From Austropuccinia psidii (lineage: Eukaryota; Basidiomycota; Pucciniomycetes; Pucciniales; Sphaerophragmiaceae): a stretch of 64,000 bases of DNA. This document shows positions 50,620 through 57,989 of this stretch, one piece after another. The stretch spans positions 37,524,437 to 37,588,436 of the forward strand of contig JALGQZ010000004.1 of assembly GCA_023105745.1 (NCBI GenBank), in the 5' to 3' direction. The notes under the pieces are model-generated. The model was not told the DNA's origin and did no database searches. It saw only the letters and a list, made by a program, of their open reading frames with translations. Numbering within the stretch: position 1 is the stretch's first letter; each line of letters starts with the position of its first letter. Position numbers and translations under genes: made by a program.

Positions 50620-51567
50620 CTCTGTGTCAGCCTGTGACTCAAAATAGAGCACCAGCATGACATCCAACATGCCATAAGTAATGGTATGAGGAATATTGGA
50701 CAAATATAGCCAATACAAGTAAATTATAAAGAGGAAACCTCCTCAAAGATAATAAGAAAGGACAAAGATATGCCCTATCAAAGATAAGACCAAATAAGCA
50801 AAAACTCTTATTCTGGCCTCTAATCTAACTTATGTATATTTAATGGGAACCCCACCAGAATTGTTATTTTTCTTAAAGCTCACATAGAGAGCTACACAAT
50901 GATATCATCCATGTTGTTGTAACACCACTACAACTGGAGATACCATATAACCTTATTTTCAAAACCAAGTCCCCCTGAAAGTCAAAGAGGGCTTGTACAA
51001 AACTGTACAAAAGTATAACCAAATTAAAGATCTCAACAAGAGCTCTAATTTGAGACACCTTAGACCTCTGTATCTCTTAAATTGACTGAGGGATCTTGGT
51101 TCAAAGGTTTAATAACCAAAATACAGATATTCTGAAAACAAGAAAATAAACAAACCCCTGTATTTTTGGCATACACTCATACAACTGTACAGTGTAATAT
51201 ACCAAACTGTAGAGCTCATCAAGCCCTACAAAACTGTATCATCAGAATACTGATATCTTCCAAATTGAAGAAGATATCTAGCATGGAAGTTTTTGAAGCC
51301 TCATACTGATGTACAAAATTACATCCAAAAACTTAAAACCCTTATAACTTTTGCTATTTGCAAGAAGGGTAAACATGAAGCATACCAAATTGAAGAGCTC
51401 ATTAAGCCCTTCAATTCTGTGCTCTTGGTTTCTTGATATCTCAAAAACTGACTGAGATATCTTGGTTGGAAGTATTTTGACCAATACTGGCCTGTACCAA
51501 ACCTGTACCAACCAGTACTGGCTTGATACTTAAAATAATGGTTGTTTAAAGCTTAAACCCGCCCAGA

Positions 51568-51761
51568 ATGACTAATATTAGTCATCCAGACACTCTGGAC
51601 ACGTCACAATGGTGCTGACGTGGCCTGTGAAGAGTTTTTTCACCCTGTATTGATCCAGAATGATCATTTGTGGTCCAAAAACCACAATTCTGACTATGCT
51701 GACGTCAGAATTGATGGTACAGAACCACAACCCAGCCTCCAGAGTGAAAATTTTCACTCTG
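51568..51761 (+). promoter_or_regulatory. palindrome cluster in the U3 region of E
   Basis: Within 200 bp upstream of the TATA-like motif lie ATGACTAATATTAGTCAT (51568-51585, perfect), TTGTGGT/ACCACAA (51668-51687), AATTCTGAC/GTCAGAATT (51686-51712) enclosing TGACGTCA (51700-51707), and a 22-bp perfect palindrome with arm CAGAGTGAAAA (51740-51761). TGACGTCA is the classic bZIP/CRE site. I infer enhancer-like binding sites. Confidence 0.6.
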
Positions 51762-51805
51762 TAGACGTGTGAAGAGCCTACCAGTCTTTCACAGTCCTCA
51801 GAGGA

Positions 51806-51838
51806 GATAAAAGCAGGTCTTTCCTCACTGGAAAAGAC
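51806..51838 (+). promoter_or_regulatory. TATA-like motif and hairpin in the LTR of E
   Basis: GATAAAAG (51806-51813) is followed by GTCTTTCC (51817-51824), loop TCACT, and GGAAAAGAC (51830-51838): eight pairs with one bulged A. It is equivalent to the A, I and H hairpins but with different bases in the stem. Duplicate at 57674-57706. Confidence 0.6.
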
Positions 51839-56468: not shown

Positions 56469-56480
56469 TGAGCCTTTTTT

Positions 56481-56492
56481 GGAGGGAGGGTA
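56481..56492 (+). promoter_or_regulatory. polypurine tract of E
   Basis: GGAGGGAGGGTA lies directly 5' of the 3' LTR and 13 bp after the ORF's stop. It is expected to prime plus-strand synthesis, as in element A. Confidence 0.75.
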
Positions 56493-57989
56493 TGTCAGCC
56501 TGTGACTCAAAATAGAGCACCAGCATGACATCCAACATGCCATAAGTAATGGTATGAGGAATATTGGACAAATATAGCCAATACAAGTAAATTATAAAGA
56601 GGAAACCTCCTCAAAGATAATAAGAAAGGACAAAGATATGCCCTATCAAAGATAAGACCAAATAAGCAAAAACTCTTATTCTGGCCTCTAATCTAACTTA
56701 TGTATATTTAATGGGAACCCCACCAGAATTGTTATTTTTCTTAAAGCTCACATAGAGAGCTACACAATGATATCATCCATGTTGTTGTAACACCACTACA
56801 ACTGGAGATACCATATAACCTTATTTTCAAAACCAAGTCCCCCTGAAAGTCAAAGAGGGCTTGTACAAAACTGTACAAAAGTATAACCAAATTAAAGATC
56901 TCAACAAGAGCTCTAATTTGAGACACCTTAGACCTCTGTATCTCTTAAATTGACTGAGGGATCTTGGTTCAAAGGTTTAATAACCAAAATACAGATATTC
57001 TGAAAACAAGAAAATAAACAAACCCCTGTATTTTTGGCATACACTCATACAACTGTACAGTGTAATATACCAAACTGTAGAGCTAATCAAGCCCTACAAA
57101 ACTGTATCATCAGAATACTGATATCTTCCAAATTGAAGAAGATATCTAGCATGGAAGTTTTTGAAGCCTCATACTGATGTACAAAATTACATCCAAAAAC
57201 TTAAAACCCTTATAACTTTTGCTATTTGCAAGAAGGGTAAACATGAAGCATACCAAATTGAAGAGCTCATTAAGCCCTTCAATTCTGTGCTCTTGGTTTC
57301 TTGATATCTCAAAAACTGACTGAGATATCTTGGTTGGAAGTATTTTGACCAATACTGGCCTGTACCAAACCTGTACCAACCAGTACTGGCTTGATACTTA
57401 AAATAATGGTTGTTTAAAGCTTAAACCCGCCCAGAATGACTAATATTAGTCATCCAGACACTCTGGACACGTCACAATGGTGCTGACGTGGCCTGTGAAG
57501 AGTTTTTTCACCCTGTATTGATCCAGAATGATCATTTGTGGTCCAAAAACCACAATTCTGACTATGCTGACGTCAGAATTGATGGTACAGAACCACAACC
57601 CAGCCTCCAGAGTGAAAATTTTCACTCTGTAGACGTGTGAAGAGCCTACCAGTCTTTCACAGTCCTCAGAGGAGATAAAAGCAGGTCTTTCCTCACTGGA
57701 AAAGACTCATCTTATCATGAATTAACATCCTTACGTAGTAAAACTGTCTTATACCAGTAGTACTCTTAGGATTATATTGATATAATTAAAATAATTAATT
57801 ATTGTAGTGTTTCTTTACAGTCAAAGATATTAGAGCATTGCAACCCAGGTCCTCAATAGACTCATCACCACTGTTACCACATAGCAGTAGGACCTGAAGA
57901 CTTAATTTTTATTTATTTTGTGTGTGTCACAGTCATAGTGCTAGCTTGTATTTACTATTTTTAAGCTACTACATAGACTCACCCTGACA
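56493..57989 (+). repeat. 3' LTR of element E
   Basis: Same length as the 5' LTR (1497 bp); the single difference is A at 57085. The target duplication CTCTG follows. ORFs at 56741-56926 and 57146-57379 repeat those of the 5' LTR. Confidence 0.95.

What the first reader, a model, noticed from the sequence alone, without database searches (positions are those of the whole stretch)
50625..57989. A recently moved Gag-protease-only retrotransposon with pol deleted in frame
Element E has LTRs with one difference in 1497 bp, a perfect CTCTG target duplication, and a 931-codon ORF without stops in a window where every other element is broken. The ORF joins the protease directly to the last 45 or so residues of Pol; RT, RNase H and integrase are gone. 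The intact frame suggests the Gag-PR product is still made and useful for its own movement, with enzymes supplied in trans by full type-1 relatives. This resembles TR-GAG elements, but with protease and a Pol tail kept.
Basis: partly seen in the sequence, partly recalled or inferred. Interest (0 to 1): 0.9.

Follow-up and report, generated by a model that had tools for sequence, protein, structure and literature searches.

The report
Gag-protease-only retrotransposon family in myrtle rust
This is one copy of a many-copy fungal jumping gene that keeps only its shell protein and protease and most likely borrows its copying and inserting enzymes from complete relatives, a fungal match to a kind of element already described in wheat.

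Summary
Element E (50625-57989) has 1497-bp LTRs with one mismatch, a CTCTG target duplication and a 931-codon Gag-protease ORF joined in frame to a 45-residue Pol-type C-terminus, without RT, RNase H or integrase. It is not a one-off: in the window's genome (about 1 Gb, by protein matches Austropuccinia psidii) 40 of 40 other copies read carry the same junction, 29 of 40 with the ORF fully open; 13 more junction hits were only listed. Variants shared between copies show purifying selection (omega 0.54; protease 0.27; no stops), private variants look neutral (0.96; 13 stops). The 1.55-kb leader has no ATG where about 17 are expected. Apparently complete relatives exist in the same genome (33 of 38 scored loci list an open frame of 1957 aa); the one read at both ends shares PBS, PPT and LTR termini with E. 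E's Gag-PR averages 52% identity to 43 related proteins, so the pol loss looks old. Wheat RLG_Sabrina_SA and RLG_WHAM are direct precedents. Expression and trans-mobilisation are inferred.

The parts
50620..50624 (.). target-site duplication CTCTG, left copy
50625..52121 (+). 5' LTR, TGTCAG...CTGACA
52122..52137 (+). primer-binding-site region TTTTGGGGGCCTGGCC, the same 16 bases in 19 of 20 other copies (L009 one base different) and in one complete relative
52122..53672 (+). leader of 1551 nt, 18% GC, no ATG; holds three copies of a ~250-bp repeat (52379-53207)
53673..56468 (+). 931-codon Gag-protease-tail ORF
55008..55454 (+). helical capsid-like region of Gag (ORF residues 446-594), moderate to good confidence
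55572..55613 (+). zinc knuckle CHNCGSPDHYANNC; same 14 residues in 37 of 40 ORFs
55911..56219 (+). retropepsin-like protease domain (ORF residues 747-849); DTGA at 55965-55976, kept in 37 of 40 ORFs
56298..56330 (+). junction zone between protease-side homology and Pol-tail homology
56331..56465 (+). last 45 codons, homologous to the chromodomain-side C-terminus of Pol
56481..56492 (+). polypurine tract GGAGGGAGGGTA
56493..57989 (+). 3' LTR
57990..57994 (.). target-site duplication CTCTG, right copy

Best explanation
E is a recent copy of a non-autonomous ('semi-autonomous') Ty3-like LTR retrotransposon family of Austropuccinia psidii. Its RNA is read from the first AUG, after a long AUG-free leader, into one Gag-protease protein that builds and matures particles. 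RT, RNase H and integrase, absent from E, are supplied in trans by complete type-1 relatives, which use the same primer-binding site, polypurine tract and LTR termini. Shown here: structure, many copies with the same junction, recent insertions, purifying selection on Gag-PR during spread, mosaic copies, cis signals shared with one complete relative, and open-frame relatives in the same genome. Inferred: translation, particle formation, packaging, and which relative supplies the enzymes.
For: 40 of 40 other copies read align with E's ORF across the junction. 29 of 40 are fully open (16 of 20; 13 of 20). In the first 20, LTR pairs differ by 0-10 mismatches in about 1497, three have none, and 19 of 20 have an exact 5-bp duplication. 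Shared variants N112 S61 stop 0, omega 0.54, p 1e-4; protease 0.27, p 0.003; capsid region 0.32, p 0.013; private variants N162 S50 stop 13, omega 0.96. Leader 0 ATG against 16.8 +- 3.1 in shuffles; 8 ATG in 33,369 nt over 21 leaders. Mosaic copies fit co-packaging and template switching. 33 of 38 scored relatives list an open frame of 1957 aa. The one whose ends I read has the same 18-base PBS stretch, PPT stretch 17 of 18, and an 88.8% identical 125-column block over stop codon, PPT and LTR start. Protease domain matches retropepsins.
Against: No RNA, protein or transposition data. No test shows that type-1 enzymes act on E, and only one complete relative was read, at its ends. Residues 196-405 show no selection among shared variants (omega 1.09, against 0.66 for private ones), and the contrast of shared with private N/S is moderate (Fisher p 0.013). 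The p-values treat variants as independent, which recombination and shared ancestry weaken. Copies were chosen by similarity to E's leader or 3' end, so older broken copies are under-sampled. In the leader TAG is also rarer than in all 300 shuffles (5 against 17.6) and CAT is low (15 against 26.7), so the missing ATG may partly reflect other sequence bias. A pol-bearing element with an E-like Gag cannot be excluded.
Confidence: 0.78

Rival explanations
1. Passive satellite: the Gag-PR product is not used; E is amplified by the enzymes and Gag of others, and the ORF is open only because the family is young.
For: Many copies are very young (three of 20 LTR pairs without mismatch); 11 of 40 other copies carry a stop or frameshift; residues 196-405 and the tail look relaxed.
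Against: Shared variants are depleted of amino-acid changes (omega 0.54; protease 0.27) and have no stop where about 11 are expected, whereas private variants are near neutral with 13 stops. The leader has no ATG.
Confidence: 0.1
2. Hidden autonomous twin: pol-bearing elements with an E-like Gag-PR exist, impose the selection and pass it to E by recombination.
For: Mosaic copies show recombination in the family. The genome tool scored only the best 40 of 666 and of 498 candidates, so divergent or rarer elements could be missed.
Against: 40 of 40 copies read have the junction and no pol between protease and tail. In the protein search the one near relative, P0001 (97%), has the same junction; the other listed hits with more than 60% coverage are at most 57% identical. 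Proteins longer than about 1629 aa were outside that search's length limits.
Confidence: 0.15
3. Interference: the Gag-PR product mainly competes with or poisons type-1 particles, like truncated Gag restriction factors of yeast Ty1 (recalled).
For: Divergent Gag co-existing with open-frame type-1 elements.
Against: E itself spread recently and in many copies, and its protease is conserved, which a pure inhibitor would not need.
Confidence: 0.04
4. Assembly artefact joining protease to the Pol tail.
For: Repetitive genome.
Against: The same junction at 40 other places, 19 of 20 whole copies with their own exact duplication, and in a separate public protein, P0001.
Confidence: 0.01

Closest known systems
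RLG_Sabrina_SA and RLG_WHAM of wheat ('semi-autonomous' GAG-Pro Gypsy elements; PMC9744471, passages read)
   Same: LTR elements encoding only GAG and protease, RT and integrase absent, high copy number, PBS and LTR termini shared with an autonomous partner (RLG_Wilma).
   Different: Plant, not fungal. E keeps a 45-residue Pol tail and a leader without ATG; whether the wheat elements have these was not checked.
RLG_Quinta of einkorn wheat, partner of RLG_Cereba (PMC11302176, passages read)
   Same: Gag-encoding non-autonomous element with its own diverged Gag, old loss of RT and integrase, recombination between lineages, shared PBS and LTR ends.
   Different: Quinta encodes GAG plus a domain of unknown function; E encodes Gag plus protease plus Pol tail.
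TR-GAG elements (e.g. Arabidopsis AT5TE33540, PMC8704663, passages read; original paper not held)
   Same: LTRs and a single ORF with Gag, pol missing; in Arabidopsis a new insertion was seen, with a full relative as likely helper.
   Different: Described there as a single ORF encoding GAG; E retains protease and a Pol tail.
Type-1 Ty3-like elements of the same genome
   Same: In the one complete relative read at its ends (L049, L050): same PBS stretch, near-identical PPT, same LTR start, near-identical LTR end, leader without ATG, homologous ORF start and end.
   Different: They carry pol in the same open frame; Gag-PR of 43 related proteins about 52% identical to E, Gag N-terminal part of the one read 33%.

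Membership tests
semi-autonomous GAG-Pro LTR retrotransposon (Sabrina_SA/WHAM kind) | LTR element whose ORF encodes Gag and protease, RT and integrase absent | tested here: met
   for E; same ORF across the junction in 40 of 40 other copies
semi-autonomous GAG-Pro LTR retrotransposon (Sabrina_SA/WHAM kind) | intact ORF maintained across a multi-copy family | tested here: met
   29 of 40 open; selection
semi-autonomous GAG-Pro LTR retrotransposon (Sabrina_SA/WHAM kind) | PBS identical to an autonomous partner | tested here: met
   TTTTGGGGGCCTGGCCGT in E and in the one complete relative read
semi-autonomous GAG-Pro LTR retrotransposon (Sabrina_SA/WHAM kind) | conserved LTR termini | tested here: met
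   TGTCAGCCTGTGACTCAAAA shared; CATAGACTCA(C/G)CCTGACA at the other end
semi-autonomous GAG-Pro LTR retrotransposon (Sabrina_SA/WHAM kind) | active at the same time as the partner | tested here: inconclusive
   20 E copies 0-10 mismatches per LTR pair; one complete relative 99.5% over 1041 bp
semi-autonomous GAG-Pro LTR retrotransposon (Sabrina_SA/WHAM kind) | shared promoter motifs | tested here: inconclusive
   only short LTR blocks of 25-57 columns align inside the LTRs
semi-autonomous GAG-Pro LTR retrotransposon (Sabrina_SA/WHAM kind) | similar subfamily structure of the two partners | not tested
TR-GAG | single ORF encoding Gag without other polyprotein domains | tested here: not met
   protease domain present, modelled as folded and under selection
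LARD/TRIM | no coding capacity for retrotransposon proteins | tested here: not met
   931-codon Gag-PR ORF
Ty3/Gypsy chromovirus | RT of the Ty3 chromovirus clade and integrase with chromodomain | tested here: inconclusive
   E has no RT; a complete relative's C-terminus has a Tf2-1-like SH3 match and a weak Chromo match below the curated cut-off; no RT tree was made

The most novel reading that the evidence does not exclude
A split retrotransposon system. The complete type-1 element seems to have Gag, protease and Pol in one frame (open frame 1957 aa; about 1951 codons from ATG to stop by the ends read, the middle not read), so translation alone would give Gag and Pol in equal amounts. A Gag-PR-only family carrying the same packaging and integration signals could supply the surplus Gag that particles need, so that both families gain and the missing ratio control is carried by a separate, selected element.
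Probability: 0.2. Interest if true: 0.72.

Novelty: new member of a known kind. Interest (0 to 1): 0.5.

Why it matters
It extends Gag-protease-only LTR elements, which I know from wheat, to a gigabase rust genome dominated by Ty3 elements. It also gives a sequence test that such an element's protein is under selection while it depends on others: shared variants are constrained, private ones are not. If helper elements work as proposed, genome inflation in this rust depends on interacting element pairs, not single families.

Tried and rejected
Single deletion and assembly collapse: rejected. Recent derivation from today's type-1 elements: made unlikely by 52% mean identity of Gag-PR and a separate branch (46 rows, FastTree). 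A functional chromodomain in the tail: not supported (pLDDT under 50 from ORF residue 851 on; relaxed change). A 5'-leader intron: GTAAGT is kept at leader position 96 in 21 of 21 leaders and TACTAAC before the ATG in 14 of 21, but a leader without ATG fits scanning of the unspliced leader better; left open. A tail-only protein search had one candidate, P0001. tRNA genes in the window: none; the priming tRNA was not identified. TR-GAG original paper not held.

Limits of the selection test: L017 (frameshift) was dropped, so 40 ORFs of 41 were used; in-frame stops in other rows were read as X for alignment only. Six settings were run (two mutation spectra, three frequency classes): shared variants gave 0.50-0.54, private 0.92-0.96. 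On the first 20 ORFs shared gave 0.50 and private 0.91, pairwise dN/dS 0.44. Leader controls: TAG and CAT are also low, and E's LTR has 19 ATG against 29.6 expected, its ORF 71 against 65.5.

Full report
What was checked. The two LTRs (50625-52121, 56493-57989) are 1497 bp with one mismatch, flanked by CTCTG. E sits in a copia-type gene read on the opposite strand: with E and one CTCTG left out, a frame of 368 codons runs across the site (copia gag match). The 931-codon ORF begins at ATG 53673; several homologous proteins begin at the same residue. It carries a zinc knuckle and weak protease matches in Pfam. The AlphaFold2 model of residues 400-931 (46 sequences; mean pLDDT 56) shows a helical capsid-like region with moderate to good confidence, a protease domain with good confidence, and nothing folded from ORF residue 851 on; the 50 PDB matches shown are retropepsin-like proteases, among them Ddi1 and retroviral ones, best E 6e-6.

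Organism. Of the 120 protein hits listed (133 passed the threshold), all but P0001 (source ENA, unnamed) and P0117 (metaclust) are labelled Austropuccinia psidii MF-1. The window's assembly has 1,015,390,075 bases in 84 contigs, in line with the published gigabase genome of that fungus (PMC8063080, passages). The species name is therefore inferred.

Not a one-off. A 271-base leader probe gave 666 candidates, of which 40 were scored, all 99-100% identical. A 249-base probe across the junction gave 498 candidates, 40 scored, all 98-100% identical. These counts are lower bounds by the tool's own statement. I read 20 whole copies from the leader list and 20 ORFs from the junction list. All 40 align with E's ORF across the junction; 38 of 40 do so from first to last base in one piece, L025 in two pieces around an in-frame deletion and L035 without the last two bases. 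Thirteen further junction hits were not fetched. Of the 20 whole copies, 20 have both LTRs; 19 have an exact 5-bp duplication, L026 not; LTR pairs differ by 0-10 mismatches; 16 ORFs are open, with stops in L012, L015 and L026 and a frameshift in L017. Of the second 20, 13 are open and 7 have stops. With the rate of 1.05e-9 used in a rust study (PMC12210899, passages), E's one mismatch is about 0.3 million years and ten mismatches about 3.2; this is a rough scale only. A separate public protein, P0001, matches E at 97% over its 647 residues with the same junction and end.

Selection. The copies share the junction, so their common ancestor had already lost pol. In 40 ORFs (41 less the frameshifted L017) there are 398 variants. 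Those seen in two or more copies mostly arose before the last insertion: 112 amino-acid-changing, 61 silent, no stop, omega 0.54 (p 1e-4), with about 11 stops expected. By region: protease 0.27 (p 0.003), capsid region 0.32 (p 0.013), first 195 residues 0.57 (p 0.027), residues 196-405 1.09, zinc-knuckle linker 0.41 (p 0.21), tail 0.84 (p 0.48). Those seen once are mostly changes after insertion: 162, 50, 13 stops, omega 0.96. Shared and private classes differ (Fisher p 0.013 for N/S, 0.0008 for stops). A smaller set gave the same picture, and pairwise dN/dS was 0.44. Residues 196-405 run the other way (shared 1.09, private 0.66). The reading: most of the Gag-protease is needed while the family spreads, and freed after each insertion. 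The variants are not fully independent, so the p-values are only indicative.

Leader. The 1551-nt leader is 18% GC and contains no ATG against 16.8 +- 3.1 in dinucleotide-preserving shuffles, lowest 9 of 300; with two of the three repeat units cut out, still 0 against 11.7. Over 21 leaders there are 8 ATG in 33,369 nt. The one complete relative read at its 5' end also has none in 943 nt against 11.9. This is what scanning ribosomes would demand. Two controls temper it: TAG (5 against 17.6) and CAT (15 against 26.7) are also low in the leader, and ATG is low in E's LTR too (19 against 29.6), though not in the ORF. A conserved GTAAGT near the start of the leader leaves a spliced form possible.

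Recombination. Trees of the LTR and of the two ORF halves disagree, and difference counts along the ORF switch between patterns (for instance L016 and L018). Such mosaics are what template switching between co-packaged RNAs would give; this step is inference.

Helper. A search with P0102, a relative's protein with RT and integrase, gave 122,237 candidates and 38 scored loci; 33 of 38 list an open frame of 1957 aa. Single stops are printed for one first stretch and three second stretches, two of these at loci listed with 1957. So apparently complete relatives are present. I read the two ends of one of them (L050, L049). Its PBS stretch equals E's over 18 bases. Its stop codons, PPT and LTR start align with E at 88.8% over 125 columns, and its LTR end reads CATAGACTCAGCCTGACA against E's CATAGACTCACCCTGACA. 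Its two LTRs are 99.5% identical over the 1041 bp read. Its Gag N-terminal part is 33% identical to E's. Over residues 400-870 E averages 52% (highest 58%) to 43 related proteins, which average 76% among themselves. So E's Gag-PR looks like an old separate lineage that still carries the cis signals of type-1 elements. That is the pattern used in wheat to pair non-autonomous with autonomous families (PMC9744471, passages: PBS, LTR termini, timing, promoter, subfamily structure); the first two are met here, timing and promoter are inconclusive, subfamily structure is untested.

Comparison. The wheat families RLG_Sabrina_SA and RLG_WHAM encode only GAG and protease and count as semi-autonomous (PMC9744471, passages). 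RLG_Quinta encodes a diverged GAG without RT and integrase (PMC11302176, passages). A TR-GAG element was seen to move in Arabidopsis (PMC8704663, passages). E works like these, and by the features tested it belongs with the GAG-Pro kind. I found no paper describing such a family in rust fungi in the searches (listing); the library is open-access only.

Verdict.

Noticed in passing
window 52122-53672: Leader of E has no ATG in 1551 AT-rich bases; one complete relative's 943-nt leader (L050:1042-1984) also has none. TAG and CAT are low in E's leader too.
   Followed up: yes
window 52217-52222 and the start of the leader in L050: GTAAGT conserved in 21 of 21 E leaders and present in the relative's leader; possible splice donor.
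   Followed up: partly
window 57995-58948 (-) and left flank of E: E interrupts the frame of a copia-type gag/protease gene; the empty site gives a 368-codon frame across it.
   Followed up: yes
L016, L018 and others against E: Copies are mosaics of subfamilies; LTR identity to E (93-99.7%) and leader blocks (about 90-99.6%) vary independently.
   Followed up: partly
window about 803-8452 (+), 3' LTR from 8480: Degenerate type-1 Gag-PR-RT-IN element with stops; related LTR pieces at 34263 and 61604.
   Followed up: partly
window 14196-12903 (-): Degenerate, distant Gag-PR relative (about 25% identical to E) on the other strand.
   Followed up: no
P0001: A public protein of unnamed ENA source, 97% identical to E's C-terminal 647 residues; by eye its differences crowd near the C-terminal tail.
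   Followed up: partly
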